Shown one piece after another: positions 8,695 through 32,700 of a DNA stretch of 64,000 nt (the first letter of the stretch is position 1; the number at the start of each line of letters is the position of its first letter). The DNA lies in NCBI RefSeq assembly GCF_022919075.1, contig NZ_CP095078.1, forward strand, positions 310,001 to 374,000, read 5' to 3'. A model generated the notes under the pieces. The model searched no databases and was not told where the DNA came from. It worked only from the letters and a program-made list of their open reading frames with translations. Source of the DNA: Nocardioides sp. W7 (GTDB lineage: Bacteria > Actinomycetota > Actinomycetes > Propionibacteriales > Nocardioidaceae). The position numbers and the translations under genes were made by a program.

Positions 8695-9282
8695 TCACCA
8701 GTCCTCGTCTTCCTCGGAGCTCCAGACCCGCTCGGGGCCGACGTACAACTCTGCCCGCACGTGCGCCGGGACCTCGTCCTTGACCATGTCCACGAACGCC
8801 TCCCGCTCCAGGGAGCCGGTGTCCTCCACCCTCATGGAGACCCACGCGGTGTCGTCCGGGACGTCGCCGGCTCGCCACACGCCGCCACCCTCCCGGACCT
8901 CCGCAGGACCGCCGCTGAGCAGCTCGAGGAAGGAACGCAGACCACCCACGGTCCCCCGAGTCGCGAGGGTGCGGGCCGCCGTGGCCACGATACGTCTCCG
9001 GAGGACCGCCGGCATGGAGTTGTCGAGACTGTCCACCCCGATCCACGAGCCCAGCCAGGCGATCGAGTCCTCCGGCGCCACCGAGAGGTCGGCGACGTGC
9101 TCGATGCTGTCGGCGTCCTCCAGCAGGGTGGTGCCGACCTCCTGGAAGATCGAGACGAACCGGACGAAGAAGTCCTGGCTCAGCATCTGCACCGGCAGCT
9201 GGCGCAGCATCCAGTCCTCGGCCCGTCGCGGCTGCCGATGGCCGCTGGTCAGCGCCGCGGACGCGCGGACCAGGGAGGTCAC
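8695..9282 (-). CDS. Phage tail protein I-like baseplate component (195 aa)
   Basis: This corresponds to Afp12/Cis12, the second baseplate wedge protein. It has the family pattern LPVQMLSQDFFVRFVSIFQE, then a block with AWLGSWIGVDSLD, and then ARTLATRGTVGGLRSFLELL. The GTG at 9282 overlaps the stop of the upstream baseplate J gene (GTGA), giving translational coupling. The C-terminus is acidic (SSEEDEDW). It is expected to pair with the J protein to form the baseplate wedges around the spike. The length fits a lean eCIS version. Confidence 0.85.
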   Translation of the reverse strand: MTSLVRASAALTSGHRQPRRAEDWMLRQLPVQMLSQDFFVRFVSIFQEVGTTLLEDADSIEHVADLSVAPEDSIAWLGSWIGVDSLDNSMPAVLRRRIVATAARTLATRGTVGGLRSFLELLSGGPAEVREGGGVWRAGDVPDDTAWVSMRVEDTGSLEREAFVDMVKDEVPAHVRAELYVGPERVWSSEEDEDW

Positions 9283-11231
9283 CGCACCACCACCTGGTGC
9301 ACGGCCGACAGGAACAGCGACTGCCGGTCCAGCCGGATCACGTCCTTGGCGGCGCCGAGGCGACGGCCCGAGCGCAGGTCGTACTCGAAGAGCAGCGCCT
9401 CCTCGACCCGGTCCACGCCCTCGACCGACTCCAGGATCTGGGTGACCGTCGCGATGTTGAGGTCGGCGTCGAAGGGCCAGCCGGTGCCGTCGGGTCCGCC
9501 GACGAGCGGGTTGACGTAGCGGTTCAGCGCATCGACCGAGCGCTGCCGGACGATGCCCGGCGGGCGCCCCGGCGCGCCGTACACGCGGGCGACCACGGAG
9601 ACGCCCTGGTAGAACGGCGTGGTCACCTCCACGGCCGTCCCGATCACCCGGTGCTCGTCGAGATGCTCGGAGATCTCCGCCATCAGGTCCTGCGAGATCG
9701 CGTAGTCGTCGATCTGGTGCCCGCCGACGTCGCCGCGGGCGTGCGGGACGACCAGCAGCTGGACCGTGCCGTTGCCGCGACGAGCCGAGCGGCACCGGGC
9801 CCGCGCGACCTGGGGCGAGGCCTCCAGGGTCAGCCGCTCGTAGTCGCCGGCGGTGACCGCACGCTGGCCGGTGCGCAACGTCAGCGGCCCGCGGACCTTC
9901 GCCTCCGCCACCGTCTCGGCGTCCACGCCACCGGTCGCCGGCTGCAGGTTCATCACGCCGCTCACGAACGGCAGCGTCGAGCGGAGCAGGCTGAGGGTGC
10001 GGGCGCCGACGTTGCCGCGGGTGCCGCCACCGTGGCGGTACGACGTCACCTCGATCCGCGCGCCGTCCCGCGGGATCGCGCCGTGCTGGCGCACCGACCC
10101 GTCGGGGTAGCGGACCCGGGGGCCGAAGTGGATGGTGCCGGCGCCGCTGTCCCACACGTAGTGCCGGTCGCCGTCGCGCGACTCCGAGAAGTCCGCGACC
10201 TCGGTCCACTCCTGGGCGTGGTCGCCGTCGACGACCCGGACCACCTCGTCGGCCCGACGCGGCAGGACCGGCACCCGGGACACCCCGAACACCTGACCCG
10301 CCGCCCCGTCGCTGCGGCCCACGACCTCCGGCGGCGCCGTCTCCGCGTGCTCGGCGCGCACCGTGCCGCCCAGGGCCGCGACCTCGATGCTCTGCACCCG
10401 CGGCGAGGCCTTGTACGTCGGCTGGCCGCTGACCGGCGCGAGCAGCCGGGTCCGCAGCCAGTACGCCGAGTGGTTGCCGACGCTCATCGGGACGTGCACG
10501 GTCGGCACCATCAGCACGATCTCGCCGGCCCGGTTCAGGCCACCGGTGGTGTCCTCGTAGATGTCGGTGGCGATCCAGGCGTCGCCGTTCCAGACCTCCC
10601 AGACCAGCGGGGGACGCCGCGGGTCCACGCCGATGCCCTCGGCCTCGGCCGACACCGAGATGCGCAGCACCATGCCGGCCAGGGAGTCGCGGAAGCCCAG
10701 GCAGAACGCGTCGCCGGGGGTCATCTGCTCGGAGGCGAAGACCGGTACGCCGGCGGGGTTGAACCGCAGGTCCTCCCACACGTCGCGGGTGCGGCCGTCG
10801 CCGACCGTGACGACCTGCGCGGACTCCAGGACGGGCGGGGCGATGACCAGCTCGGTGTCGGTGCTGAACACGACGGCGTCGGCCCGCTCCGCGGCACCGG
10901 CGACCGTCATCACCTCGGTGTCGGCGGGCACCACGACGGGCGAGTCGAGGACGGCGGAGAGCCAGAAGGTCAGGTCGGTGCTCGCGACCGCGGGCGGGAA
11001 CGGCTCGATGCCCACCATGTTGAGGAAGTGGGTGTAGAGCCGCTCGGGCACCTGGTTGACGCGGAAGAGCACCATCTCGCTCATCCATGCGAACAGCTCG
11101 ATCAGCGCCACGCCCGGGTCGGAGACGTTGTGGTTGGTCCACTCGGGGCAGTAGCGCGGGATCAGCCGCTTGGCCTCGTCGACGATGTCCTGGAAGGTCC
11201 GGTCGTCGAGGCCGGGGGTCGGCAGTGGCAT
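9279..11231 (-). CDS. Baseplate J-like assembly protein (Afp11/Cis11 type, 650 aa)
   Basis: The N-terminus has the conserved wedge block (DRTFQDIVDEAKRLIPRYCP, then NVSDPGVALIELFAWMSEM). The centre carries Ig-like insertions, and the C-terminal third is the baseplate J region (TAGDYERLTLEASPQVARAR and RVYGAPGRPPGIVRQRSVDA). In contractile systems this wedge protein senses the signal and triggers sheath contraction. It follows the gp25 gene by 16 bp and overlaps the tail protein I gene. The ATG at 11231 lies close behind the gp25 stop, as expected. Confidence 0.92.
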   Translation of the reverse strand: MPLPTPGLDDRTFQDIVDEAKRLIPRYCPEWTNHNVSDPGVALIELFAWMSEMVLFRVNQVPERLYTHFLNMVGIEPFPPAVASTDLTFWLSAVLDSPVVVPADTEVMTVAGAAERADAVVFSTDTELVIAPPVLESAQVVTVGDGRTRDVWEDLRFNPAGVPVFASEQMTPGDAFCLGFRDSLAGMVLRISVSAEAEGIGVDPRRPPLVWEVWNGDAWIATDIYEDTTGGLNRAGEIVLMVPTVHVPMSVGNHSAYWLRTRLLAPVSGQPTYKASPRVQSIEVAALGGTVRAEHAETAPPEVVGRSDGAAGQVFGVSRVPVLPRRADEVVRVVDGDHAQEWTEVADFSESRDGDRHYVWDSGAGTIHFGPRVRYPDGSVRQHGAIPRDGARIEVTSYRHGGGTRGNVGARTLSLLRSTLPFVSGVMNLQPATGGVDAETVAEAKVRGPLTLRTGQRAVTAGDYERLTLEASPQVARARCRSARRGNGTVQLLVVPHARGDVGGHQIDDYAISQDLMAEISEHLDEHRVIGTAVEVTTPFYQGVSVVARVYGAPGRPPGIVRQRSVDALNRYVNPLVGGPDGTGWPFDADLNIATVTQILESVEGVDRVEEALLFEYDLRSGRRLGAAKDVIRLDRQSLFLSAVHQVVVR

Positions 11232-11247: not shown

Positions 11248-11682
11248 TCACTCGGCGTCGTGCGGGATGACGTAGAACGGGTAGACCAGGTTGCGGCGAT
11301 CGTTGGTCGCGCGCACCCGGAAGGTGATGTTGATCCGGACCAGCGAGGGGTTCTCGACGTCGGGCTCCGGGTGGACGTCCTCGACGACGACCCGGGGCTC
11401 CCACTGGGCCAGCGCGTCGCGGACCGCCTGGGAGATCAGGCCGAGCAGGTTGGCGGTGACCGGCTCGAAGAGCAGGTCCCAGATGCGACACCCGAACTGC
11501 GGGCGCATCAGCCGCTCCCCGGGCGCCGTCATCAGCACGATCTCGATCGCGCGGTCCAGCTCGGGTACGCCGTTGGAGAGCCGGATCGACCCGGTGTGGT
11601 CGACCCCCAGCGGCCAGCCGAACCCGCGGCCGACGAAGGCGCTGGTGTCGCCGGTGTTGCCCGGCAGGGCGATCTCGGACAT
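11248..11682 (-). CDS. GPW/gp25 family baseplate protein (144 aa)
   Basis: The hallmark residues of gp25 are present: GFGWPLGVDHTG, APGERLMRPQFGCRIWDLLF and VRDALAQWEPRVVVEDV. The protein forms the inner collar of the baseplate and nucleates the sheath. The ATG overlaps the stop of the VgrG-like gene (ATGA). Its length matches Afp9/Cis9. Confidence 0.95.
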   Translation of the reverse strand: MSEIALPGNTGDTSAFVGRGFGWPLGVDHTGSIRLSNGVPELDRAIEIVLMTAPGERLMRPQFGCRIWDLLFEPVTANLLGLISQAVRDALAQWEPRVVVEDVHPEPDVENPSLVRINITFRVRATNDRRNLVYPFYVIPHDAE

Positions 11683-13445
11683 CAGTTGATCGCCACCATC
11701 GCGCCCTTGATGGCCAACGGCCCGCCGGCCTCGATCTTGCCGGTCGCCGACGCCTTGACCTCCACCTGGGCCCCCTCGAGGGACGCCTTGGTGTTGCCCT
11801 TGATCCCGACCTCGGTGCCGCCGCTGATCTCGACCTTCTGCTTGGCCTTGAGGGTGATGTTGTTGCCCTCGATGGTGATGTCGCCCTGCTCGGTGAACTT
11901 GATCGTGGCCTGGCCGTTGGTGATCGTGACCGGCTTCTTGTCCACGATCACCTCGAGCTTGTCCTCGCCGAGCCGGATCTTGTGCTTCTTGCCCTTCAGG
12001 GTCAGCAGGATGTGCTGGTCGGCGGGCGCCTCCCCGTCGGCCAGCTCGATCAGGTGGCCCAGGCGCGAGGTGATCCGGCGGAACTTCACCTTGTTCTGGT
12101 CGACGTCGTCGCTGGTCGGCAGGCCCTTGTTCTTCGAGAACAGCCCGCCCAGGATCACCGGCCGCCGGGTGTCGCCCTGCTCGAAGGCGATCAGCACCTC
12201 GTCGTTGACCTCCGGGGTGAAGACCATGCCGCGCTTGTCGCCGCCACCGAGGGTGACCAGGCGGGCCCAGTGCGACTCGACCTCGCCGGAGATGGTCGTG
12301 TACTTCACCTTGGCCCGGCCGATCTTGTCCGGGTCGGCGAGGTCGGTGACCAGCGCCGGCAGCACGCCGTTCATCGTCAGGCCCGGGTCGCGGCGGGCGC
12401 TGCCGCCCAGCAGGTCGACCAGGCTGGAGGGCCGGTGCGGTCCGGCGGTGAACTGGGTGGTGAAGCCGGAGCGGTTGTAGACGTGCTCGACCTTCGACAC
12501 CAGGTAGGAGCCCGAGGTCGGGCCGGCGTTGACCACCTTGACCTTCACCCCCGGCGCGATGGCGCCGTTCACGTCGCCCGAACCGCGCGCGACGACGCCG
12601 GCGGCGCTGGCCTCGGCGAGGAAGGACTTCGCCAGGGTGGAGGCCTCGGCGGCGTCCAGCGGGGGCGGGTCGGCCACCAAGACGTCCTTGGTCCAGCCGC
12701 GCGATCCCGAGCCGGAGCGGCCGGGGACGTTGGTGACGAAGTTCGACTCCGCCGTCGCCTTGGTCTCCGCCTCGCCCGTGATGGCGGCCTGCTGGGCCTG
12801 GTCCCACCCGGTCACCGAGACCTTGTCGGGTCCGGCGGCCGAGGCGCGCACGGAGAAGGAGCGCAGCTGCGGCGTACCGAGCGTGACCTCGACGACGCTC
12901 GACCCGGCCGTGCCCGCCGCCACCACCTTCAGGCTCTTGTCCTCGACCCACCAGACCAGGCCCGCCCGGGCCGCGATCGCGCTGAGGTACGACAGGTCGG
13001 AGCCCGCCTGGAGGAGGTACGGGTGCGAGCCCGCGGCGCCCGTGACCGACGCGCTGAGGCCGGTGCCGACGACGAGCTTGGTGATGATGTCGGAGTACGA
13101 CTGGTTGAGGAAGGCGCGGCTCTTGACCCGCCCGGCCATCCGGTGCGTCGGGTCGTCGACCGTGACGATCAGCTCCGGCGTGTGCAGGCCGTCCTGCTCC
13201 AGGGCGATCCCGGTGACCTCACCGCGGATCAGCTGCTTGGTCCCGCTGAGCACCTCGACCTCCTTGCCCACCTTGAAGGTGGTCGAGGAGGCCAGGGCGT
13301 ACCCGTTGTCGACGAACCGCAGGGTCGCCCGACCGGGCAGGCCGATGGCCCGCTCCACCCGGACCGCCGTGAGGCCCTCGAGCCACTTCAGGGGCAGCGT
13401 GCTGCCCTCGACCTTGACGACCGGGGCGGTGTCGATGGGCGGCAT
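11682..13445 (-). CDS. VgrG/gp5-gp27-like central spike (587 aa)
   Basis: Residues about 1-330 correspond to the gpD/gp27-like hub (YSDIITKLVVGTGLSASV; LLQAGSDLSYLSAIAARAGL). Residues about 345-430 form the OB fold (NGVLPALVTDLADPDKIGR; FTPEVNDEVLIAFEQGD, with GGLF). The last 120 residues are the triple beta-helix needle (VTITNGQATIKFTEQG; ITLKAKQKVEISGG). There is no extra effector domain at the C-terminus. It is expected to form the trimeric spike tipped by the PAAR-like protein encoded at 22943-23332. The start overlaps the LysM gene stop by one base. Confidence 0.95.
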   Translation of the reverse strand: MPPIDTAPVVKVEGSTLPLKWLEGLTAVRVERAIGLPGRATLRFVDNGYALASSTTFKVGKEVEVLSGTKQLIRGEVTGIALEQDGLHTPELIVTVDDPTHRMAGRVKSRAFLNQSYSDIITKLVVGTGLSASVTGAAGSHPYLLQAGSDLSYLSAIAARAGLVWWVEDKSLKVVAAGTAGSSVVEVTLGTPQLRSFSVRASAAGPDKVSVTGWDQAQQAAITGEAETKATAESNFVTNVPGRSGSGSRGWTKDVLVADPPPLDAAEASTLAKSFLAEASAAGVVARGSGDVNGAIAPGVKVKVVNAGPTSGSYLVSKVEHVYNRSGFTTQFTAGPHRPSSLVDLLGGSARRDPGLTMNGVLPALVTDLADPDKIGRAKVKYTTISGEVESHWARLVTLGGGDKRGMVFTPEVNDEVLIAFEQGDTRRPVILGGLFSKNKGLPTSDDVDQNKVKFRRITSRLGHLIELADGEAPADQHILLTLKGKKHKIRLGEDKLEVIVDKKPVTITNGQATIKFTEQGDITIEGNNITLKAKQKVEISGGTEVGIKGNTKASLEGAQVEVKASATGKIEAGGPLAIKGAMVAIN

Positions 13446-14101
13446 CAGCCCTCCAGCCTCGGGATGTCGAGCAGCGCGCCGGGCCGGATCGCCAGCGGGT
13501 CCTCCAGGCCGTTCGCACTGGCCAGCACCCGCCAGCGGGTGGCGTCGCCGTAGTAGCGGGCGCTGATCCGGTCCAGGGTCTCCCCCGGCTGCACGCGGTG
13601 CACACGGCTCGGTTTGGGGGTGCCGGAGGTGGGGTTCTGCGGGCCGAAGGCGTTGGAGCGCTCGTACTGCATCAGCTCCAGGTGCAGCTGCGCGCGCAGC
13701 GGGACACCGGAGGAGGAGAAGTAGGTGAAGCTCAGCCGCAGGTCCTGCACGACCGCCTTGAAGGAGTGCAGGTCGCCCCAGTGGAAGGTGACCGTCGGCG
13801 GGCGGGCGTTGTTGGTGGTCTCGTCCGAGCCGGGGAGGTTCGGGTCGATCTCCATCAGCCCGAGGATCTTGCCCGTGTGCGCGGTGACCGCGGTGCCGAC
13901 GTCGGTGGTGTCGAAGATGAGGTCCAGAGCCATCCAGCCGGACCCGGCGCCGGCGTACTGCAGGGTCGAGACGCCCTTGCCGGGCATCGGGTTGGACACC
14001 CAGTTGTTGCGGCGGCCGATGCTGAGGGTCTCGGGGTTGTACAGACACGGGAGCCGGGTGCCGTCCTCGGTCTCCAGGAACGCCTTCTCGAGCTCCGACA
14101 T
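13445..14101 (-). CDS. LysM-containing CIS tube-hub adaptor (Afp7/Cis7 type, 218 aa)
   Basis: An N-terminal CIS tube-type domain (residues about 1-155: LPCLYNPETLSIGRRNNWV; PPTVTFHWGDLHSFKAVVQD) is followed by a C-terminal LysM (VQPGETLDRISARYYGDATR; RPGALLDIP). In Afp and PVC particles this protein joins the tube to the spike hub. LysM here probably serves structure rather than wall binding. The gene overlaps the genes on both sides by one to three bases. Confidence 0.92.
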   Translation of the reverse strand: MSELEKAFLETEDGTRLPCLYNPETLSIGRRNNWVSNPMPGKGVSTLQYAGAGSGWMALDLIFDTTDVGTAVTAHTGKILGLMEIDPNLPGSDETTNNARPPTVTFHWGDLHSFKAVVQDLRLSFTYFSSSGVPLRAQLHLELMQYERSNAFGPQNPTSGTPKPSRVHRVQPGETLDRISARYYGDATRWRVLASANGLEDPLAIRPGALLDIPRLEG

Positions 14102-17100
14102 CAGAACGCCGCCCAGTCCTGGCGCCGGCCGCGCCGCTCCAGCTCGTCGATCACGCGCTGCTCGACCCGCTCGACGACCGCGTCGACGAGGGCCTCCAGG
14201 GCACCGCCGGGCTGCAGGTCGTCATCGAGCTCCGCCGGACCCTGGCCCGCCATGGTCGTGGCCGGCGACCCACCGGACGGGGCCGACCAGCGGCGCACCA
14301 CCGTGCCGGGCGAGGACGGGGCCGACCCCCCAGGCGACCACGACTCGTGCTGGTGACCGGACATGGAGGTTCCTCCCTCGTCGAGGAGGCGTCGTACGAC
14401 GCCCTCGGGGACCGAGCTGAACAGGTGGGCGGTGGACTCGACCAGCGAGCGGGGCGCGCCGGCCGGGGTGCTGGTGGGGGTCGACGTCGGCCCGGACGTG
14501 CGGGCGACCGACGGGACGGGGGGCGCGGCGGGGCCGTCCCCGCGAGACGGGCTGATGCTGATCCGGGGCGGGGCGACCGTCATCCGGCTGATCCGGCCGG
14601 CGGGGGCGGCACCGGGGCCGCCGGTCGGACCGGCGCCAGGCGGGGCGATCAGGCCGACGACGGGCACGGGCGGGCCGGACTGCATGGACTGCCCGGACTG
14701 CCCGGACTGCGCGGACTGCGCGGCCAGGCCGGGCATGGTGGGCGCGGGCATGGTGGGCATCGCGGATGACGCGGCGGCCGGGGTGCTGCTCGGCGGGGCG
14801 GCGGGGGTCCACGGGCCGGCGGTGCTCGCCGACGCGCTCGTCCTCGAGGCTGCCATCGGGCCTGCCGTGGTGCGGGTCGGGCCCGCGGGGGTACGCCGCA
14901 GCGGCTCACCGCCGCGGTCGGCGCGGGCGAGCAGGCCGGGGACCGGTACGCCGCCCGGGGCCGGGGGCGCGGTGCGCGCGAACCCGGTCACGGGACCGCC
15001 GCTCGCTGCCGCGGAGCCGCCGCCCGCAGGCGCGGGGGCGACGCGCGCCCAGCGGAGCACGGTGCTCGGCGAGGTCGTCGGGGTGGCGACCTCGCGGATC
15101 GCGGCCGGGGTGGGGTAGGTCGGAGCGCCCGCCGCCGGAACGGCGGACCCGGCCGGGGTGCCGGGGGTCGCCCGCGGGTTGGTCGAGCGAGCGATCACCG
15201 GCGCGGACCCACCCGTCGCGGTCGGTGCGCCCAGGCGCTGGTGAGGCGCCGCCGGGGCGGCGGAGCCGGTCACCGACGACGCGGGGGTGCGGCGCAGCAC
15301 CGGAACTCCCGCCGCGGGAGCGGACGACGTGGGGGCAGACGACACGGGCGATGTGGACGATGTGGACGACGCTGCCGAGCTCGAGGGGGCCGGGCGGGCG
15401 GACCCGTCGGACCGACCGCGAGGCGCGGAGGCAGCCGCCTCGCGCGGGGGCGCGGCGTGCGCGCGCGGAGTCGGGGTGACGAGGGGCCCACCCGCGGCGC
15501 CGGACGTGGTCGCCCCGGTGACCGGGCGGATCGCCTCCGAGCCGGCGAAGCCGGACGCGAGCGACCGGGTGGCATCGACACCGAACGCCGCGCGCCGGCG
15601 CACGGTCATCAGCTCGGGCATCGCGATCGCGCCGCCGGTGGGCGCGGTGTGGGCGTGCGAGCCGGAGAGCAGCGACGCGACCGGGCGGGGCGGTTGCCCC
15701 GCCTGCTGGGTCGCGACCCGTCGGACCGGTGTCGGCGCCGACGGAGTCGTGGCCGAAGCGGCCGGCGCTGCCTGCGGTGCCTGCGCGCCCGGGGCAGATC
15801 CCGTCGTCATCGACAGCGCCGACGACGATGAGGATGAGGATGAGGAGGCCGACGCGGCGGAGGAAGCGGCAGCGGGGGTCGAGACCGTGGGTGCCGAGGG
15901 CGGGGCCGCCGGGGCCGCCGACGACGAGGAGGCTGACCCCGCGGGGGCCGAGGAGGCAGAGGTCGCCGGTGTGCGCCGGACCTCGGTCGGGGCGGTGCCG
16001 GTCGGGGCGCTTGCCGGGGCGCTCGGGGTGCTTGCCGGGGACCCGGGGCGCGCCGTGCTCGTGCTGGACGCGGTGGACGCCGACGGCGCTTGGTGAGCGG
16101 GCCGGCTCGGGCTGGGCGGTGCCACGGCGGCGGGACCGGAAGCGGCGGCTGAGGTGGCCGCCGCGGCGGCGATCCCGGGGGCGACCGAGGAACGGCGGAT
16201 CTCGGTGGCCGGTCGGATCGCGGTGTCGACGACCTCGGGGCTCCACATCCGGCGGATCGAGCGGGCGGTCGTGCGGAAGAGATTGCCCGGGGCACCGCCC
16301 AGCGGCGCCGCGAGCATCGCGCGAGCGGTCAGGTGGGGCGCCGATGCCGCGGGTGCGGTCGGGGTCTCGGCCGCCCGGGTCGCAGTTGCGACCGCAGCCG
16401 CGGACGGCGAGCCGGCGGCGCCGGACGCACCGGAGATGCTCGGGTGCGCGGCCCGGGCCGACTGACGTGCCTGGGCGGCCTCGGCCGCCGGGACCGGAGC
16501 GGACGGGTCGGCGGGCAGCCGATGGATGGTGGGGCCGACAGCCGCGACCGCCGCCGGCGAGGAGGTCCGGGCCTGCGATGCCGAGGCGGGCGAGCCGGCC
16601 GAACCTGCGGCACCGCCGGCCGACGAGCCGGCCGTGGGCGAGGACGTGCGGGTGCCCGGCGCCGGGGTCGGGGACGCGGACCCGGACGGAGCGGACGCCG
16701 ACCCGGATCGCGCCACCGTCTCGGTGGCGGCGGTGCTGCTCGTGCTGCCCGTGCTGGCGCTGTCGATGCTCGACCGGCGCACCGCCGGGGCTGAGGCCGT
16801 GCCGGTCGGCGCGGGCGCGGCCGATGCCGATGCCGCAGCAGCGGCCGCCTCACGGCGGGTCGCCGCCTGGCGCATCACCACGCTGGTGGCGCCCCACAGG
16901 TCGCGACGCGAGGCGGGGGCGGCGGCGTACGAACGGGCGATCAGGTCGGAGCCACCGGCGCGGATCGCGACCGGCGACGAGACGGCGGCCGCGAGGAACC
17001 GGTCGCCGCTGCTGGTCGATGCGGTCGCGAGCTGCTCGACGGCCTGCGGACCGCGGCCGGCGACGGGTGCCCGACGAACGACGCTGCTGAACCGGGGGCG

Positions 17101-18180
17101 GGCGGGCGAGAGCTGCCACGCGGAGCGGCGTACGTCCGGGGCTCCGGCACCCGGGCTCGGCGCCGAGACCGACCGCGCGGTCGCCGTGGCGGTCGCCCCC
17201 GAACCGCCGGACGGGGCGGCCGGCGCGACCGGGCCGGCCGGCGATCCAGACGGCCCGGCACTCGGTGACCGGCGGACCGGGTCCGAGGTCGGGGCCGTCG
17301 GGGCGGAGGTCGGGCTCGTTCTCGGGATGGAGGTCGAACCGGAGATCGAAGAGGCAGCCGTGGGAGCGGAGGCCGCAGACGAACCGCCGCGCTCACCCTC
17401 CGCGCCGGCGTCACCAGAGCTCGCGCGGGGTCCGGCGGGGCTGCTCGCACCCGAGCCGCTCGGGGCCCGGGGGGCGGGCCGGGTGGCGGGCGCGGCCGGG
17501 CTGGGTGCGGGAGCCGGCGGCGCGGACGCGGCGGGTGTACGGCGCACGGTCGGGGTGGGCGCCGGCGCAGCGGCCGCCTCGGCCGACTTGCGAGCGGCGG
17601 TGGCGGCGTGCAGCCGCGCCTGGTCGGCGGCCATCAGCATCGGGCCGGCAGCGACGGTCTCCGTGTGCCGGCGGACGTTGGCGACCTCGGCCTGCAGGCC
17701 GTTGACGATGCCGCCGGGGCTCCAGCTCTGCTCGTTGGGGATCGAGCGGGCGGCCCGGGGCAGCTCGCGGCCACCCAGCTGCTCGGTGGGCAGCGCCCGC
17801 GAGGGGGCCAGCCAGCTCGGGGTCGACGTCGAGGCGGCGACCGCGCGGCGCAGCCCGACGGCGCGACCCGGGCGCACGACCGGAGCGGCCACCACCTCCG
17901 GCGAGGCCGGCATCGGCACCCACCAGCGCGGCGGACGGACGTACCCGGCGAGCGACGCGGAGGGGTCGGGGCCGGCGAGCGCTCGGCGTACCTCCACGGG
18001 GCGCGAGGTGGACGCGGCGAACCGGGAGACGCCGGAGGCGAGGCTGCCGATCCGGGACGGCAGCGGCCGGCCCAAGGGCGGTCCGGGCAGCCGCATCCGG
18101 CGCACGGCAGCAGCGCCCAGCCAGTGGGTGGGCTCCTCGCTGGGCGTCGCGGGGGGAGTCTCGATCGTCGTCTCGGTCAT
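14101..18180 (-). CDS. Giant Ala/Ser/Pro-rich low-complexity protein in the CIS operon (1359 aa), candidate tape measure or tube cargo
   Basis: The protein is mostly disordered (Ala, Ser, Pro, Thr and Gly). It has an ordered-looking N-terminal 190 residues (THWLGAAAVRRMRLPGP; a helix AADQARLHAATAARKSAEAA) and a helical C-terminus (GALEALVDAVVERVEQRVID). A short motif [V/I/L]RR, often followed by [T/S/A]P, recurs about 18 times along the chain. The phrase SWSPGG occurs near both ends. The gene sits between the second tube protein and the LysM hub gene, overlaps the latter, and is the only large unassigned gene in the operon. I infer a scaffold that runs inside the tube, but a toxin carrier is possible. 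No catalytic motif (for example HExxH) was seen. Confidence 0.8.
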   Translation of the reverse strand: MTETTIETPPATPSEEPTHWLGAAAVRRMRLPGPPLGRPLPSRIGSLASGVSRFAASTSRPVEVRRALAGPDPSASLAGYVRPPRWWVPMPASPEVVAAPVVRPGRAVGLRRAVAASTSTPSWLAPSRALPTEQLGGRELPRAARSIPNEQSWSPGGIVNGLQAEVANVRRHTETVAAGPMLMAADQARLHAATAARKSAEAAAAPAPTPTVRRTPAASAPPAPAPSPAAPATRPAPRAPSGSGASSPAGPRASSGDAGAEGERGGSSAASAPTAASSISGSTSIPRTSPTSAPTAPTSDPVRRSPSAGPSGSPAGPVAPAAPSGGSGATATATARSVSAPSPGAGAPDVRRSAWQLSPARPRFSSVVRRAPVAGRGPQAVEQLATASTSSGDRFLAAAVSSPVAIRAGGSDLIARSYAAAPASRRDLWGATSVVMRQAATRREAAAAAASASAAPAPTGTASAPAVRRSSIDSASTGSTSSTAATETVARSGSASAPSGSASPTPAPGTRTSSPTAGSSAGGAAGSAGSPASASQARTSSPAAVAAVGPTIHRLPADPSAPVPAAEAAQARQSARAAHPSISGASGAAGSPSAAAVATATRAAETPTAPAASAPHLTARAMLAAPLGGAPGNLFRTTARSIRRMWSPEVVDTAIRPATEIRRSSVAPGIAAAAATSAAASGPAAVAPPSPSRPAHQAPSASTASSTSTARPGSPASTPSAPASAPTGTAPTEVRRTPATSASSAPAGSASSSSAAPAAPPSAPTVSTPAAASSAASASSSSSSSSSALSMTTGSAPGAQAPQAAPAASATTPSAPTPVRRVATQQAGQPPRPVASLLSGSHAHTAPTGGAIAMPELMTVRRRAAFGVDATRSLASGFAGSEAIRPVTGATTSGAAGGPLVTPTPRAHAAPPREAAASAPRGRSDGSARPAPSSSAASSTSSTSPVSSAPTSSAPAAGVPVLRRTPASSVTGSAAPAAPHQRLGAPTATGGSAPVIARSTNPRATPGTPAGSAVPAAGAPTYPTPAAIREVATPTTSPSTVLRWARVAPAPAGGGSAAASGGPVTGFARTAPPAPGGVPVPGLLARADRGGEPLRRTPAGPTRTTAGPMAASRTSASASTAGPWTPAAPPSSTPAAASSAMPTMPAPTMPGLAAQSAQSGQSGQSMQSGPPVPVVGLIAPPGAGPTGGPGAAPAGRISRMTVAPPRISISPSRGDGPAAPPVPSVARTSGPTSTPTSTPAGAPRSLVESTAHLFSSVPEGVVRRLLDEGGTSMSGHQHESWSPGGSAPSSPGTVVRRWSAPSGGSPATTMAGQGPAELDDDLQPGGALEALVDAVVERVEQRVIDELERRGRRQDWAAF

Positions 18181-18210: not shown

Positions 18211-18687
18211 TCAGGTTTGGGTCTTTGCCCGAAAACCGTGATGCGTGACCTCGAGCTCCTCCTCGAGCGGATCCCTGCTCTCGGCCGAGAAGTCGGGACC
18301 CTTCCAGCGGACGGGGAAGACGTCGATCAGCTCCCAGGCGCGCAGCCGGGTGCCGAGGTGGTCGAGCGCGGTGATCGCGCCGGTCGACCGGGTGAGCTTG
18401 TTGCTGCTGGCCGCGAAGCCCTCGCCCGAGGACTTGTTGAGCCACTCGAAGAGCGCGTTGCCCTGGGTGACGCCGCGTCGGAACACGATGTTCGGCCAGG
18501 TCATCCGGCCGGGGACGCGGTGGCTGAAGCCGTTCTGGCCGCCCTCGCGGAACTCCTCCACGTTGACGGTCACCTGGAGACCGTGGATCTCGCGGAAGAC
18601 GCCGATCTCGACGCCGTCCAGCTCGAACAGGAACCGGCTCGCGGTGGGGAGCTCCCCACCCAGCGGCTCGGACGCCTGGTCAGCCAT
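18211..18687 (-). CDS. Second tail tube protein (gp19 family, Afp5/Cis5-like, 158 aa)
   Basis: Clear T4 gp19 family features are present: TASRFLFELDGVEIGVFREI at the N-terminus, VPGRMTWPNIVFRRGVTQGN in the middle, and a C-terminal strand (EELEVTHHGFRAKTQT). In Afp-type particles this less abundant tube protein starts the tube on the hub. Its ATG lies inside the DUF6760 gene (8-bp overlap). Confidence 0.93.
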   Translation of the reverse strand: MADQASEPLGGELPTASRFLFELDGVEIGVFREIHGLQVTVNVEEFREGGQNGFSHRVPGRMTWPNIVFRRGVTQGNALFEWLNKSSGEGFAASSNKLTRSTGAITALDHLGTRLRAWELIDVFPVRWKGPDFSAESRDPLEEELEVTHHGFRAKTQT

Positions 18688-18853
18688 GATCGCGTACCAC
18701 CTGCCATGCTCGCTCGTTCAGGGAGACGACCGCGCGCACCATCCGCACGCGGTCCATGTGCTCGAGGTCGAGCAGCTCGTCGAGGCTCCAGTGCAGGTGG
18801 TACGCCAGGTAGGCGATCTCCTGCCACAGGGCGTCGGTCGGATAACGCAGCAT
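18680..18853 (-). CDS. DUF6760 small protein (Afp6-like position, 57 aa)
   Basis: A 57-codon gene runs from the ATG at 18853 to the TGA at 18680. The protein begins MLRYPTDALWQEIAYLAYHL and continues with HWSLDELLDLEHMDRVRM, the characteristic DUF6760 signature next to tail tube genes. It lies 9 bp after the tail assembly gene and overlaps the second tube gene. Afp6-type proteins are small assembly factors of unknown mechanism. Confidence 0.9.
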   Translation of the reverse strand: MLRYPTDALWQEIAYLAYHLHWSLDELLDLEHMDRVRMVRAVVSLNERAWQVVRDHG

Positions 18854-18862
18854 CCGAGCGAC

Positions 18863-19378
18863 CTACTGCGTCCGCCGCGGGAGCTCCTCGACGCCGCGAC
18901 GGAGGTTGGGCCGCGAGACCTGGTACGGCGCCGCCGCCCCCGGCTCCGACTCGGGTGCGAGCCCGTCCGGCGCCTCGGCGGCCGGCTCGGGCTCCGGCGC
19001 CGGGCGCGCTGCCGGGTCCGCCGAAGCGGTCCCGAGCAGCGCGCTCGACTCCTGGGCACTGATCAAGGCGTCGTACTCCTCCTGGCTCCCGAAGTTGATC
19101 ACTCCGTAGAAGTCCTGGAGGAACGCGAGGTCGACGGCGAAGAGGCCCTCGATCTCGTGTGCGGTCACCATCGCGACATCGCCCAGCTTCTCGACCACCC
19201 GGGTCAGCACCAAGATGGTGAGCCTCGGGTCGTCGGGACCGGTGATGCGCGGGTCGCGCAGCGGCTCCAGCTCGTCGCGAGCCGTCGCGAGCCGCATGGC
19301 CCCCGTGCGGTGCAGCCGGCCGTCCTGGTCGACGTAACCGCGCGGGAGGGTGAACTCGTACGAAGTCTTGAGGGTCAC
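18863..19378 (-). CDS. CIS tail assembly protein (171 aa)
   Basis: Residues 1 to about 110 contain the block YEFTLPRGYVDQDGRLHRTG, then MRLATARDELEPLRDPRI and FAVDLAFLQDFYGVIN, as in the assembly chaperone gene found after the tube gene in actinobacterial CIS loci. The C-terminal 45 residues are a Pro/Ala/Glu-rich tail. The GTG at 19378 is the start that keeps the conserved N-terminus. The gene lies 10 bp after the tube gene. Confidence 0.82.
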   Translation of the reverse strand: MTLKTSYEFTLPRGYVDQDGRLHRTGAMRLATARDELEPLRDPRITGPDDPRLTILVLTRVVEKLGDVAMVTAHEIEGLFAVDLAFLQDFYGVINFGSQEEYDALISAQESSALLGTASADPAARPAPEPEPAAEAPDGLAPESEPGAAAPYQVSRPNLRRGVEELPRRTQ

Positions 19379-19388
19379 GAAGCCAGTA

Positions 19389-19859
19389 TCACTTGACTCG
19401 CTCGAGGCGCTCGATCACCAGGGTGATCGTCTCCTTGAGGGCGTCGTTGGAGTCGGCGGAGACGCCGTCGGTCGCGATCTTGCTCGGCCAGCCGCTGAAG
19501 AAGTTGAACCGGCCGACCTCGGTGCCGACGACGTCGTACAGGACGATCGAGCCGTTCTTGCGCTTGTCGGCGCGGTTGGCGCCGGCCATGCCCTTGTCGC
19601 GGATGTCGGTGAACCACTTCCAGATCGGGTCGCTCATGGCGTCGAGCGGGGCCATGCGGGTGATCGAGAGGTCGGCCGTCTTGTTGGCGGTGCCGCGGGT
19701 CTTCACGGTCTCGGCGATGCCCTTGGCACCGACCTGCTGCATCTCGACGACGTCGATCTCCTGCTCGAAGCCGGACACGCCGGACAGGATGATCGCGGCG
19801 CCGTCGAGCTCCAGGAAGAAGTTCTGGGAAACGATCGGGTCGGACTTGATGAGGCTCAT
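19389..19859 (-). CDS. Main tail tube protein (gp19 family, Afp1/Cis1 type, 156 aa)
   Basis: Sequence features are SDPIVSQNFFLELDGAAI, the insertion loop GIAETVKTRGTANKTADL, and SDPIWKWFTDIRDKGM, typical of the hexameric inner tube of eCIS particles. It sits 37 bp behind the sheath gene in the same operon. As the most abundant structural subunit along with the sheath, it forms the channel for cargo. Confidence 0.95.
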   Translation of the reverse strand: MSLIKSDPIVSQNFFLELDGAAIILSGVSGFEQEIDVVEMQQVGAKGIAETVKTRGTANKTADLSITRMAPLDAMSDPIWKWFTDIRDKGMAGANRADKRKNGSIVLYDVVGTEVGRFNFFSGWPSKIATDGVSADSNDALKETITLVIERLERVK

Positions 19860-19896: not shown

Positions 19897-21468
19897 TCAG
19901 GAGGACTGCTTGTGCTGGGCGATCCGGAACACCACGAACTCGGCGGGCTTCACCGGGGCGATGCCGACCTCGACGATCAGCATGCCGGCGTCGACCGACT
20001 CCGGGGGGTTCGTCTCCGCGTCGCACTTGACGTAGAAGGCCTGGTCGGCGCTGGCGCCGGACAGCGCGCCGGCGGTCCACAGGCCGCGCAGGAAGCCGCT
20101 GACCGTGCGGTTGACGCCCTCCCACAGGGTGACGTCGTTGGGCTCGAAGACGGCCCACTGGGTGCCGGACAGGATCGCGGTCTCCACCATGTTGAACAGG
20201 CGGCGGACGTTGATGTAGTTCCAGTCGGTGTCCGAGGCCAGGGTGCGCGCGCCCCAGATGCGGATACCGCGGGTGCCGAACGGGCGGATGCAGTTGATGC
20301 CGATCGGGTTGAGCAGCGACTGCTCGTTCTGGGTGATGCTCCGCTCGATGTCGAGCACGCCGCGCATGGTGTCGTTGGCCGGGGCCTTCCACACACCGCG
20401 GGTGTCGTCGGTGCGGGCCCACACGCCGGCGATGTGGCCGGACGGGGGCATCAGGATCTCGGTGTCGCCGTTGGTCGGGTTGGGGTTCTCGACCTTGATC
20501 CAGGGGTAGTACAGCGCGGCGTAGGCCGAGTCGTACATCGCGACCTCGGAGCGCCACTCCTTGATCTGCTGCGGGTTCATGCCGGGAGGCGAGTCGAGGA
20601 TGGCCATCCGGTTGCCGTTCTGCTCGCAGTGCGAGATCAGGGCGGTCTGCACGGCCTTCCAGAGGCCGAGGTCGATCGAGCCGTCCTCCTTGGTGGCGGC
20701 GGTGATCAGGTCGGGGACCAGGACGATGGTGACGTCGTCGGCGACCGCGAGGCCGTTGATGCCGTTGCGGGCCGACTCGGAGCCGGCGAACTTGCGGCCG
20801 GTCACGGCGACCGGGACGGGCGCGGACTTCTCCAGCGGGTAGACGCCCGGCTTGATGAGCTCCAGCTGGGCGGCCAGGTCGGCGTCGTCGTCGAGGTTGA
20901 GCTCGATCTTGACCTTGGTGGAGGTCGCGTTGACCTTCGTGGCGACGTTCGAGTCACCCTTGCCGAAGTCGAGGCCGGCGTACTCCTCGACCGGGCTGCC
21001 GCCCTCGAGGACGGTCAGCGTGAAGGTCGCGGGACCCTCGTCGTCGGAGTCACCGGCGTCGTCGGTGCTGATGGCGATGGAGATGCTGGCGTCGGGCTCG
21101 ACGCTCTCGACGGCGACGGGCAGGCCCAGCGCGCGGTCGGAGGCGGGCAGCGCGGTGCGCGAGGGCTCACCGGCGGGCTCGGTGTTCGGGACCCGGCAGA
21201 TGTAGGCGATCGAGCCGCCGTTGGCGAAGTAGCCGTAGACCGAGAGCGGCAGCATGCAGCCGGGCGCGAACCCGCCGTACAGCGCCTCGAACTGGCTCCA
21301 GCTGGTGACCAGGCGCGGGGCCAGGCCCTGCGGGTCGTTGGGGTCGTCGTTCGGTGCGAGCTCGGTGAAGCCGACGAAGGCGGCAATCGCCGTCGGGGCC
21401 GCGCTGAGGATCTTCTGGGAGGAGGCGACCTCCTCGATGTACACGCCCGGGGCGGTGTAGGTAGGCAT
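19897..21468 (-). CDS. Contractile tail sheath protein (Afp2/Cis2 type, 523 aa)
   Basis: The N-terminus TYTAPGVYIEEVASSQKIL and the C-terminal core (RRLFNMVETAILSGTQWAVF; FLRGLWTAGALSGASADQAF; VGIAPVKPAEFVVFRI) are diagnostic of tail sheaths. The middle (residues about 110-250) is an acidic, more variable surface domain. A single sheath gene is present, compared with three in Afp. A GGAG site precedes the ATG. It is the first gene of the main operon; its promoter must lie in the 170-bp gap shared with the divergent transposase-derived gene. Confidence 0.97.
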   Translation of the reverse strand: MPTYTAPGVYIEEVASSQKILSAAPTAIAAFVGFTELAPNDDPNDPQGLAPRLVTSWSQFEALYGGFAPGCMLPLSVYGYFANGGSIAYICRVPNTEPAGEPSRTALPASDRALGLPVAVESVEPDASISIAISTDDAGDSDDEGPATFTLTVLEGGSPVEEYAGLDFGKGDSNVATKVNATSTKVKIELNLDDDADLAAQLELIKPGVYPLEKSAPVPVAVTGRKFAGSESARNGINGLAVADDVTIVLVPDLITAATKEDGSIDLGLWKAVQTALISHCEQNGNRMAILDSPPGMNPQQIKEWRSEVAMYDSAYAALYYPWIKVENPNPTNGDTEILMPPSGHIAGVWARTDDTRGVWKAPANDTMRGVLDIERSITQNEQSLLNPIGINCIRPFGTRGIRIWGARTLASDTDWNYINVRRLFNMVETAILSGTQWAVFEPNDVTLWEGVNRTVSGFLRGLWTAGALSGASADQAFYVKCDAETNPPESVDAGMLIVEVGIAPVKPAEFVVFRIAQHKQSS

Positions 21469-22942: not shown

Positions 22943-23332
22943 TCAGCCGGCGGTGGTCTTCATGGCGCCGGTCATGGTGATGCTGACCATGCCGCCGAAG
23001 GCGCAGTTGCAGGTGGAGCCGGAGACCAGCGCGGGTTTGCCGCCGATGGTGGTCTTCAGGGCGCCCGGCTTCCACGGGCCGGCCATGGTCGGGATGCACG
23101 GCATCGGGGTGAGTACGCCGAGGGCGGCGGAGGTGGCGGCGGCGACGGTCGGGTTGGAGAGGCTGGTGCACATCCCGAACGGCGGGATGTTGACCATCGG
23201 CATCATGTCCATCGTGGTGCCGGCCGGCCGGCCCTCGATGGTCACCCGGGTGATGGGCAGGAAGTTCAGGGTCGACGGCGCGACGCCGAACGAGCACGTC
23301 GCCATCGCCCCGGTCACTACCGACTGGCCCAT
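22943..23332 (-). CDS. PAAR-like spike tip protein (DUF4280-type, 129 aa)
   Basis: The N-terminal GQSVVTGAMATCSFGVAPS, the centre GMCTSLSNPTVAAAT, and the repeated Cys-Pro turns (TPMPCIPTMAGPW; STCNCAFGGMVSI) match PAAR-like/DUF4280 proteins, which cap the VgrG spike with a metal-stabilised cone. It corresponds to Afp10/Cis10. It is third in a minus-strand operon after the DUF4255 and lipoprotein genes, and is separated from the VgrG gene by the whole structural operon. Confidence 0.92.
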   Translation of the reverse strand: MGQSVVTGAMATCSFGVAPSTLNFLPITRVTIEGRPAGTTMDMMPMVNIPPFGMCTSLSNPTVAAATSAALGVLTPMPCIPTMAGPWKPGALKTTIGGKPALVSGSTCNCAFGGMVSITMTGAMKTTAG

Positions 23333-29702: not shown

Positions 29703-32700
29703 CGACAGGTACGACGGAATCGAGCCGCGCCCGCTCGTCGGCGTGGCCCCGCAGATCGGCACCGCCGCCGCCGTCCCGACCACCCTGCGCGTCGCGGTCA
29801 CCAACGCCGCCGCCCAGCCGCGGGTGCTGTCGGTGGCCGCGGTCGGCCTCGACGCCTCGTGGACCACGGGGCCGCAGCGCACCGGCGTGCTCGCGCCCGG
29901 AGGCTCCGCCGTCGTCGAGATCCGGCTCTCCCCGCCGCTGGGCACGCTGCCGGCGCACTACCCGCTGGTGGTCGCCGCCCAGCCGCTCGACCCCGAGACC
30001 GGCCAGCCCACGAGCCCGGTGACCGGCACCGCCGAGTCCGTGCTCGTCGTCAACCCGCGATCGCAGCTGTCCCTCGACGTCAAGCCGGCCGCGGTGACCC
30101 TGATCGGGGCGCGCCGGTTCGCCGTCGAGCTCCACAACAGCGGCGCGGTGACGGCCGAGGTCAAGCTCGAGCTCAAGTCGAGCACGCACGTCAGCTTCCA
30201 CCTCCAGCGCGACGTGGTCCGGGTCAAGCCGAGCGAGACGGTCACTGTCCGCGCCCGGGCCCGGGCCCGGCGACCCACCATGGTCGGCCCGCGCTCGGTG
30301 CACTCGTTCACGGTGAGCGCCCGGGGCTCGGAGACCGTGCGCCACGTCGACGGACAGATCATCCAGCGGTCCCTGATCGGGCCGACCGGCGTCAAGGCGT
30401 TCTTCCTCCTCCTCGCGATCGCCGTGTGGGCGGGGGCCGCCATCGTGTTCATCCCGGCGCTGGCCGAGCGGGTGCAGACCTCCTCGGAGGAGTCGGCGGC
30501 CGCGGAGTCCCCGGGCGGTGAGGACGCCGAGAGCGAGGGCGCCGACGCGGCCGCCGGCGAGGACGGCGAGGACGGCGGGACAGAGGACGGCGAGGACGCC
30601 GCGGGCGAGGAGGACGCCGCCGGGGAGAAGAAGGAGGGCCTCCAGCTCAGCGGCACCGTCGCCGGCGAGAGCCCCGAGGGCGTCTCCGTGCAGCTGGAGC
30701 CCACCTCGCTCGTCAACGAGAAGGCCCAGGGCGGCACCGGGGTCGGCGTCGAGGACGCCGTCCTGGACGGCACGGGCATGCGCCTGGCGTCGGCGTTCCT
30801 GCGCAGCGCTCCCGAGCGCGCCGTCGCCGAGCGCAGCGTGCAGACCTCCCAGGACGGCTCCTGGGCGTTCCCGTCGGTGCCGACGCCCGGCTACTACCTG
30901 GTCAGCTTCACCAAGCCCGGCTACCAGACCCAGCGGTTCGTCGTCGACTCCAGCAGCGAGGCGGCCGGCGAGCCCCTCGAGTTCGACCTGAAGTCGGGAG
31001 AGGGCTCCCTGTCGGGACGGATCACCGGCCCCGACGGCAAGCCCGAGGGCGGGGCCTCGATCACCATCACCGACGGCACCAACACCGCGGTGACCAACAG
31101 CAACTCCAAGGGCGACATCGGCGCCTGGTCCATCGAGGGCCTCTCCACGCCGAGCACGTACGTCGTGACCGCGACCAAGCACAACATGAGCAGCGAGGCC
31201 CGCGTCGTACCCCTCGGCGCCGGCGGGTCCGCGACGGCCTCGCTCAAGCTCGTCTCCGGTGTCGCGCTCCTCACCGGCAGCGTCGAGGCGTCCGGCCTCG
31301 GCGGCCGGAGCGCGGGCGTCGGCGGCATCACCATCACCGTGAGCGACGGCAAGGGCGACGTCCGGACCGCCACCACCCTCACCCAGGACCCGCGCGGCAG
31401 CTACTCGATGCCCTCCCTCCCGGCACCCGGCACCTACTCGGTGACCGCGAGCGGCGCCGGCTACCAGCCGCAGACCAAGGCGCTCACCCTGAAGAAGGGC
31501 AAGGCCACCGCCACGCTCGACTTCGACCTGAACCCCTCGACCGGTCACCTCAGCGGCCGGGTGCTCGCGACCGACGCCGACGGCGTCACGCGGGGCTGGC
31601 CGAACACCGGCCTGACGCTCAGCAACCCCGACCACACCTACAAGACGATGAGCACCGAGGCGACCCGGCCGGGTGACGAGAGCGGCAGCGGCAGCTACGA
31701 GTTCGCGGGCGTGACGCCCGGCTCCTACGTGCTGACGGCGTCGTACTTCGGCAAGAAGACCCTGCACCAGAACGTCGAGGTGAAGACCGGTCCGTCGAAG
31801 TCCTGGACCCTCCGGCTCGAGAACGACGGCAGCGACGGCCTGACCGCCAGCTCCACCATCGAGGGCTCGGTGCTGGACGCCGTCACCCAGCTGCCGGTGC
31901 CCGACAACATCTGCGCCCTCGCCGGCTCGGTGCCGGACTGCCTGACCGCGACGGTCAACCAGCCGAAGGTCCCGAGCACCACCCCCGAGACCTACGACAC
32001 CTTCACGACGTCGTTCGCGCCGGGCGAGAACTACACGCTCCCGGACCCCGAGGACAACGCGGACGCGTTCCTGCGACCCGGCCTGCACACCGTGACCGTC
32101 CGGGTGCCCGGCTACGAGGTCGGCACCGTCGACGTCGAGCTGGGCGTCGAGACCGCCGCGATCGCGCCGCTGGCCCAGCTCTTCCCCGCCCCCACCGTCT
32201 CCGGCCTGGTGACCGCGTCGTACGACGGCACCCACCCGACCAGCTGCGTGTGGGTCGTCCCCGGCAACCTCGGCAGCGCCCAGCTGGAGGACCAGCTCGG
32301 CAGCTGCAAGGCCGCCCAGACCGCTTCGCCGCCGCGCTGCACCACCTCCAGCTACCCGTTCCTGAACGAGGGCGTCCCGTCCAACGCCTGGTGTGCCGCG
32401 AGCGTCCCCGACGGCTCGGACGGCTCGACCGGTGCCGACGGCGCGTACAGCGTCCAGGTCCCGACGGTCGGCGACTACACCGTGTGGGCGCAGCCGCTGA
32501 ACCCCGAGTACGCCGCCTCGGAGCCCCGCTACGTCAATCTCGGGCGTGGGGAGACCGAGACCGCGAACCTCACCCTCGCGCGGTACGGCGAGATCACGCT
32601 GCAGGTCCTGCAGCCGGGCCCGGACGACGACAAGTTGATGGCGGTGGTCGACGGGACCGAGGTCGAGGTCACGGTCGGCGCGCGGCGGGTCACTACCGAG

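What the first reader, a model, noticed from the sequence alone, without database searches (positions are those of the whole stretch)
14101..18180. 1359-residue disordered protein with about 18 regularly recurring [VIL]RR motifs in the tape-measure slot
Seen: an Ala/Ser/Pro-rich chain with repeats of a short linear motif (for example TVRRTP, EIRRSS, VLRRTP, VVRRWS) and SWSPGG near both ends, ordered only at its N- and C-termini. It is the only unassigned large gene between the tube and hub genes, and no classical tape measure (Afp14) is found. Inferred: the repeated motifs could bind successive tube rings from inside, making it a new type of length ruler or a carrier threaded through the lumen.
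Basis: partly seen in the sequence, partly recalled or inferred. Interest (0 to 1): 0.8.

Follow-up and report, generated by a model that had tools for sequence, protein, structure and literature searches.

The report
Disordered tape-measure-slot protein with docking motifs
A long, floppy protein encoded where phages keep their tail-length ruler carries about 18 copies of a three-residue tag that this bacterium's likely injected-cargo proteins also carry, which hints at how such injection machines could organise their cargo and perhaps their length.

Summary
The observation largely holds. The 1359-residue Ala/Ser/Pro-rich protein is on the minus strand and has 18 [VIL]RR motifs against 1.0 expected (0 of 20,000 shuffles), though spaced only slightly more evenly than chance (P 0.037).

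A protein of this kind fills the same slot in 56 of 56 named actinobacterial loci with the full neighbourhood, next to a likely tail assembly chaperone: the phage tape-measure position. Nocardioides/Cellulomonas-type members carry [VIL]RR; Streptomyces/Micromonospora/Kribbella-type members carry [VIL]QR. eCIS_core (DUF4157) proteins elsewhere in the same genomes carry the matching variant. In 15 of 56 loci the slot protein itself has a HExxH eCIS_core-like domain.

So the motif looks like a lineage-specific docking code shared by slot protein and cargo family. Function is inferred, and RR versus QR is one deep split on the tree.

A strict ruler is less well supported: length drifts by hundreds of residues between relatives and motif spacing does not match tube rings. 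It stays open, because S. coelicolor particles have one length and no recognised tape measure. Best reading: a disordered lumenal scaffold or passenger that docks through the cargo code.

The parts
14101..18180 (-). The protein of the finding ('BIG'), 1359 aa, Ala/Ser/Pro-rich, 18 [VIL]RR motifs; its stop overlaps the start of the next gene
14122..14205 (-). Conserved C-terminal helix region (residues 1326-1353, GALEALVDAVVERVEQRVIDELERRGRR), shared with slot proteins of other genera
   Evidence: alignments A6 and A7 and their comparison
17920..17940 (-). N-terminal VRPPRWW motif (residues 81-87), also in several Nocardioides, Cellulomonas and Jiangella slot proteins and, as VRPPWW, in Kibdelosporangium and Labedaea
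   Evidence: not found by the pattern in about half of the rows
18211..18687 (-). Second tube protein (tubeB, Phage_T4_gp19; Afp5 / SlpT2 / Cis1b position)
18680..18853 (-). Small DUF6760 protein (57 aa) after the chaperone gene
   Evidence: E 1.1e-9; sequence read
18863..19378 (-). Likely tail assembly chaperone homologue
   Evidence: PHROG 508 E 1.5e-4; AlphaFold model and structure matches
19389..19859 (-). First tube protein (tubeA, Phage_T4_gp19)
19897..21468 (-). Contractile sheath protein
13445..14101 (-). CIS_tube + LysM protein (Afp7-like tube initiator)
11682..14048 (-). ORF holding the VgrG-like hub/spike (Phage_GPD, Phage_base_V); its first part overlaps the LysM gene, so the true start is probably further in
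9279..11231 (-). Baseplate J-like protein, used to collect related loci

Best explanation
The protein is the tape-measure-slot component of an actinobacterial contractile injection system: a disordered chain anchored by its C-terminal helix near the tube-initiator end. Its many [VIL]RR tags are docking sites for a receptor that also takes eCIS_core (DUF4157) cargo proteins, which carry the same tag. It would work as a lumenal scaffold or passenger that organises or loads eCIS_core cargo in the tube during assembly. Shown here: the slot, the likely chaperone neighbour, the motif, its lineage-matched variant in eCIS_core proteins, and slot proteins that contain an eCIS_core domain. Inferred: that the motif binds anything, that the receptor is tubeB, the tube wall, the chaperone or the eCIS_core domain, that the C-terminal helix anchors the chain, that the chain is in the lumen, and that it loads cargo.
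For: Slot protein present in 56 of 56 named loci with sheath, chaperone, tubeB and LysM genes. Motif in slot proteins: 390 [VIL]RR against 56.5 expected in the 35 of the RR group, 153 [VIL]QR against 6.8 in the 17 of the QR group; the groups were defined from these counts, so this describes rather than tests. TubeA, tubeB, LysM and chaperone show no group-matched excess; the sheath has [VIL]RR in all groups. The test proper, eCIS_core proteins outside the core domain: 51 in RR-type genomes have 145 [VIL]RR against 50.6 expected and 27 [VIL]QR against 18.3; 18 in QR-type genomes have 6 against 7.0 and 62 against 3.6. Neighbour genes as control: [VIL]RR 1.36 and 1.41 times, [VIL]QR 2.06 and 1.33 times expectation in RR- and QR-type stretches. 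The residue after the motif agrees too: Ser in RR-type slot proteins (0.25) and eCIS_core (0.26), Ala in QR-type (0.44 and 0.39). 15 of 56 slot proteins contain HExxH; Pfam eCIS_core matched 5 of 5 such proteins tested, 4 over the cut-off. In print, a potential interaction of a Streptomyces DUF4157 protein (Sle2) with the Afp5-type tube initiator SlpT2 was seen by co-elution (PMC13277306, section 5 read).
Against: RR versus QR is a single deep split on the sheath tree, so the agreement counts as one evolutionary contrast. RR enrichment in eCIS_core proteins is moderate (2.9 times, against 1.4 in neighbour genes). Only part of the eCIS_core genes were read (60 stretches for the 115 matches). 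An eCIS_core protein of G020, a genome of the window's genus without a LysM-protein match, carries 5 [VIL]QR and 1 [VIL]RR, so the variant is not fixed by genus. Core-fused slot proteins carry few motifs and no clear variant, their genomes' 8 eCIS_core proteins show neither clearly (9 against 7.1 and 7 against 3.1), and Acidimicrobiia-type members mix variants. No receptor was identified: charge changes in chaperone, tubes, LysM protein and eCIS_core domain are inconclusive. The chaperone call is not certain. The passage read on purified S. coelicolor particles names SCO4242, SCO4256 and SCO4251 among unknown proteins, not the gene I infer to be the slot protein (PMC10020575, passages). Removing three effectors left the lumen mostly empty by tomography (PMC10066040, passages), though one thin chain might not be seen.
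Confidence: 0.45

Rival explanations
1. It is the missing tape measure: the chain spans the tube during assembly and its length, or number of motifs, sets the number of tube rings.
For: Tape-measure slot beside a likely tail assembly chaperone. S. coelicolor particles have 61 sheath and 60 tube layers, all one length, and the authors note that no tape-measure gene is present (PMC12237407, section 6). Motifs are more evenly spaced than random in 13 of 17 S. coelicolor-like slot proteins at P<0.05 (10 of 28 RR and 3 of 11 other QR proteins). Motif number rises with length, r 0.62 (19 Streptomyces loci, one of them frame-broken) and 0.48 (35 RR loci).
Against: Length is not conserved: net indel length is 1.08, 1.96, 1.28 and 1.03 times the root-sum-square of indels in four groups (21, 19, 22 and 45 pairs, not independent), against 0.80 expected without constraint. 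Nocardioides-type relatives run from 957 to 1359 aa. About 1300 residues fully stretched would be about twice the tube length (0.34 nm per residue recalled), and particles of about 200 nm were seen with a Tme cut at residue 2006 (PMC11126660, passages), so there is no common ratio. The Pro-rich composition does not suit a helical tape measure.
Confidence: 0.25
2. It is itself an ejected cargo or lumen plug, a relative of the tape-measure-slot effector Tme, without organising other cargo.
For: Tme of S. davawensis has DUF4157, about 70% disorder and lies immediately upstream of baseplate genes (PMC11126660, passages). Slot proteins with an eCIS_core domain exist.
Against: The window protein has no enzymatic or eCIS_core domain that was found. 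Its motif content and conserved C-terminal helix suggest binding rather than enzymatic function.
Confidence: 0.15
3. The motifs are cleavage sites for the eCIS_core zinc-peptidase-like domain, so the slot protein is its substrate.
For: eCIS_core has HExxH. Motifs lie just after the core domain in several eCIS_core proteins.
Against: No cleavage data. A published DUF4157 toxin inhibited growth independently of the metalloprotease motifs (cited in PMC11297309, passage). The core domain of RR-type genomes is not more acidic.
Confidence: 0.07
4. The motifs have no function: a low-complexity spacer that drifts, with motifs multiplied by repeat expansion.
For: Fast indel turnover; repeat-like units in the Streptomyces member printed.
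Against: The variant agrees with that of eCIS_core proteins; neighbour genes are not enriched to the same degree.
Confidence: 0.08

Closest known systems
Phage tape measure proteins and Afp14/Pvc14
   Same: Genomic slot near the tail assembly chaperone and before tube-initiator and hub genes; one of the longest genes of the cluster
   Different: No sequence match, Pro/Ala/Ser-rich instead of helical; length drifts between relatives
Tme, tape-measure-related effector of Streptomyces davawensis (PMC11126660, passages)
   Same: Slot upstream of baseplate genes, mostly disordered; some relatives of our protein carry the same kind of eCIS_core (DUF4157) domain
   Different: The window protein has no eCIS_core or nuclease domain that was found, and carries repeated [VIL]RR motifs
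Sle1/Sle2 of Streptomyces lividans (PMC13277306, section 5 and passages)
   Same: DUF4157 protein with a potential contact to the Afp5-type tube initiator; DUF4157 proteins of other Streptomyces examined carry [VIL]QR
   Different: Sle1 is a coiled-coil effector upstream of the sheath gene, not a disordered slot protein
Disordered T3SS/flagellar ruler proteins such as FliK (recalled; search listing only)
   Same: Chain with a flexible part proposed to measure a tube
   Different: Other machine; no sequence relation tested

Membership tests
Phage/CIS tape measure protein | Gene near the tail assembly chaperone, between tube and hub genes | tested here: met
   in this genus tubeB lies between chaperone and slot gene
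Phage/CIS tape measure protein | Recognisable sequence similarity to tape measure families | tested here: not met
   no Pfam, NCBIfam or PHROG match
Phage/CIS tape measure protein | Mostly helical/coiled coil | tested here: inconclusive
   Pro 14.1, Ser 14.9% speak against it; by composition only, the protein was not folded
Phage/CIS tape measure protein | Protein length proportional to tail length | not testable with these tools
   no particle lengths for these systems; length drift argues against strict constraint
eCIS_core (DUF4157) proteins | HExxH eCIS_core domain | tested here: not met
   absent in the window protein; HExxH present in 15 of 56 slot proteins of other genera
Tme-like effectors | N-terminal DUF4157 plus C-terminal nuclease | tested here: not met
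   no domain found
Tail assembly chaperone (neighbour gene 18863-19378) | Profile match to known chaperones | tested here: met
   PHROG 508 E 1.5e-4, Streptomyces relative 2.4e-4, third relative 0.014; no Pfam match to the window protein
Tail assembly chaperone (neighbour gene 18863-19378) | Fold match to known chaperones | tested here: inconclusive
   PDB: 4 of 222 chains with Z at least 2; YqbN 7.0, HK97 tail assembly chaperone 6.0, 3fgx 5.7 (middling). Viral library: best are baseplate hub assembly and baseplate proteins (E 6.4e-6 to 8.8e-4, one of the three unnamed); a 'tape measure chaperone' only at E 0.30

The most novel reading that the evidence does not exclude
The system uses a short, lineage-specific docking code, [VIL][QR]R, read by one receptor of the tube or its assembly chaperone. 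A disordered protein with about 20 code copies replaced the helical tape measure, setting both cargo loading and particle length through multivalent docking, so cargo and ruler are recognised by the same signal.
Probability: 0.2. Interest if true: 0.88.

Novelty: new variant of a known kind. Interest (0 to 1): 0.68.

Why it matters
The eLife 2025 paper on the S. coelicolor system states that its particles are identical in length although the tape-measure gene is absent (PMC12237407), and papers on toxins of these systems call the role of DUF4157 unresolved (PMC11297309, PMC8213781, passages). This work names one conserved candidate protein and a short motif that links it to DUF4157 proteins. 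Both questions become testable with one gene deletion, one length variant and a peptide pull-down in a laboratory Streptomyces strain.

Tried and rejected
One motif per tube ring: gaps too large and uneven. Strict length constraint: not seen. Receptor by charge covariation: positions that are acidic in one group only occur in each of the five CIS proteins compared; mean net charge of the chaperone core is -5.0 (RR), -2.9 (QR), -1.5 (core-fused); inconclusive. The eCIS_core domain is less acidic in RR genomes (-1.7 against -4.7), against it as receptor by simple charge pairing. A third motif variant in core-fused slot proteins was looked for and not found clearly; [VIL]HR is raised in two Acidimicrobiia-type proteins (6 against 0.5 and 4 against 0.5), and one eCIS_core protein from one of those genomes has one [VIL]HR. 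AlphaFold of a core-fused slot protein: mean pLDDT 46.6, no PDB match under E 0.001. The PDB sequence search with the chaperone profile gave nothing. Literature: no paper in the library held both 'contractile injection system' and 'short linear motif', nor 'contractile injection', DUF4157 and LQR; SCO4249 occurs in one paper, as a label for PhoP.

Rows left out or wrong. Searches used a wrong frame for the small DUF6760 gene (right). L022 was given a wrong ORF (3 of the 153 [VIL]QR); the true ORF has 0 of either. The QR group also holds two core-fused proteins (L146, L148; 6 motifs) and the RR group two (L139, L142; 10 motifs). Of the 20 stretches, eight (L067, L073-L079) were not counted because the slot type of their genomes was not assigned. 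Of 115 eCIS_core matches I fetched 60 stretches. Searches dropped L281 (slot ORF not read rightly) and L267 (its motifs lie in another frame than its C-terminal part; left as it is), except that the length correlation kept L267; one search dropped both, and also eCIS_core ORFs of L192, L198, L209 and L213 for doubtful starts. Start codons were picked by rule, so some eCIS_core ORFs carry N-terminal extensions that raise counts and expectations.

Full report
What is there. The window lies in a 5.5 Mb genome; the closest named loci by baseplate J are Nocardioides. A contractile injection system (CIS) is encoded on the minus strand: Pvc16_N cap protein, DUF4280, sheath, tubeA, likely tail assembly chaperone, small DUF6760 protein, tubeB, the protein of the finding (BIG below), CIS_tube/LysM protein, hub, gp25-like and baseplate J. 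BIG is 1359 residues. Its 18 [VIL]RR motifs are far beyond chance (1.01 expected, 0 of 20,000 shuffles), but spacing is only weakly even. Among open frames of the window two others pass a loose excess filter for [VIL]RR, each with 4 against 1.3-1.4 expected.

The family. A scan of genome contigs with a baseplate J alignment gave 80 named loci, a capped list. Of these, 56 hold sheath, chaperone, tubeB and LysM genes, and 56 of 56 have a BIG-type protein (one, L149, was added by hand). Two gene orders occur. In 47 loci BIG lies between tubeB and LysM (572-1501 aa). In 9 it lies between chaperone and tubeB (560-1026 aa). The N-terminal VRPPRWW/VRPPWW motif, found in part of the rows, and the C-terminal helix link members of the first order. 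The C-terminal helices of the two orders match weakly (hhalign probability 82.7). From the nine modelled proteins in PMC12237407 (section 6 and a methods passage read) and this gene order I infer that the S. coelicolor member is SCO4249; this is an inference, not a lookup.

The slot. The gene upstream is a tail assembly chaperone by profile (PHROG 508, E 1.5e-4; Streptomyces relative 2.4e-4). Its predicted fold (residues 1-110 mostly confident) matches in PDB YqbN, the HK97 tail assembly chaperone and 3fgx with Z of 7.0, 6.0 and 5.7. The viral library instead ranks a T4-like baseplate hub assembly protein first, so the name is likely, not certain. In phages such chaperones act on the tape measure protein, and in P2-type phages the order is sheath, tube, chaperone, tape measure (recalled). 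So clusters said to lack a tape measure seem to keep its chaperone and a large protein in its place.

The motif code. Slot proteins: 390 [VIL]RR against 56.5 expected in 35 RR-group proteins, 153 [VIL]QR against 6.8 in 17 QR-group proteins; the groups were set by these counts, and misassignments are told under Tried and rejected. Tubes, LysM protein and chaperone show no group-matched excess; the sheath has [VIL]RR in all groups. 48 of 48 genomes that could be searched hold eCIS_core genes; the window's genome has five, none in the window. Outside the core domain, 51 eCIS_core proteins (46 loci) of RR-type genomes have 145 [VIL]RR (50.6 expected) and 27 [VIL]QR (18.3). Eighteen of QR-type genomes have 6 (7.0) and 62 (3.6). 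Per protein, RR exceeds QR in 46 of 51, and QR exceeds RR in 16 of 18. Eight proteins from core-fused lineages show neither clearly (9 against 7.1; 7 against 3.1). Neighbour genes give ratios of 1.36 and 1.41 for RR, 2.06 and 1.33 for QR. The residue after the motif also agrees between slot protein and eCIS_core within each group. The caveat is strong: on the sheath tree QR is one side of a branch and the RR rows lie together apart from a few others, so this is one contrast, however many motif copies follow it. Against a simple genus effect, an eCIS_core protein of another genome of the window's genus, without a LysM-protein match, has the QR variant.

Slot proteins with an eCIS_core domain. 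In 15 of 56 loci (Actinoplanes-type, Phytohabitans, Jidongwangia, Micromonospora sp. CPCC 205371, Kibdelosporangium, Labedaea, a MAG, and in the other gene order Solihabitans) the slot protein contains HExxH. Pfam eCIS_core matched 5 of 5 such proteins tested, 4 over the cut-off, and none of three slot proteins without HExxH; Solihabitans matches a home-made core profile at 2.7e-11. The first-order ones have 0-5 of either motif. Such fusions suggest that slot protein and eCIS_core proteins work together; with the domain in cis the docking sites may not be needed. Published work puts DUF4157 proteins at the tube-initiator end: Sle2 and SlpT2 showed a potential interaction by co-elution in S. 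lividans (PMC13277306, section 5 read), and Tme co-eluted with the tagged spike tip together with spike and tube-initiator proteins in S. davawensis (PMC11126660, passages).

Ruler or scaffold. For a ruler: the slot, uniform 268 nm particles with 60 tube layers and no recognised tape measure in S. coelicolor (PMC12237407), even spacing in 13 of 17 Streptomyces proteins (10 of 28 RR and 3 of 11 other QR proteins), and motif number growing with length. Against: length drifts without compensation (|net|/root-sum-square 1.08, 1.96, 1.28 and 1.03 in four groups; 0.80 expected without constraint). No single length-per-residue ratio fits S. coelicolor-like systems and Tme. The passages read on purified particles name no such protein (PMC10020575), and effector removal leaves the lumen mostly empty (PMC10066040). 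I therefore rank 'lumenal scaffold or passenger using the cargo docking code' first (0.45) and 'ruler' second (0.25); the two may both be true.

Novelty. I found no paper on the motif, and none of the passages and sections I read assigns a function to this slot protein. Only openly licensed papers are in the library, and the supplementary files of the S. coelicolor papers were not readable, so published mass-spectrometry tables may already list it.

Noticed in passing
G000 contig 1: 1170856, 2049823, 2285984, 2778944, 5252782 (outside the window): Five eCIS_core (DUF4157) genes scattered over the genome, none in the window; all five proteins carry [VIL]RR outside the core domain.
   Followed up: partly
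window 24652-36003 (+): Three long proteins rich in carboxypeptidase-regulatory-like repeats start right beside the CIS cluster on the other strand.
   Followed up: no
window 36032-44389 (+): A 2785-residue ORF with high GC3 and no Pfam match at E 1e-4.
   Followed up: no
window 22943-23332 (-): DUF4280 protein between cap and sheath genes, possibly the PAAR-like spike tip (PAAR link recalled).
   Followed up: no
eCIS_core proteins of RR-type genomes (L061, L191-L230): At least three share a PGC[DG]HLRRS peptide; in L061 it lies before the core domain.
   Followed up: no
chaperone genes of L144-L159 and L020-L026: Most QR-type chaperones end in a CPxC zinc-ribbon-like tail, most RR-type ones in a long Ala/Pro/Glu-rich tail (Pfam zinc-ribbon matches only weak).
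   Followed up: no
L067 (G020, same genus as the window): An eCIS_core protein with 5 [VIL]QR and 1 [VIL]RR in a genome without a match to the LysM protein.
   Followed up: no
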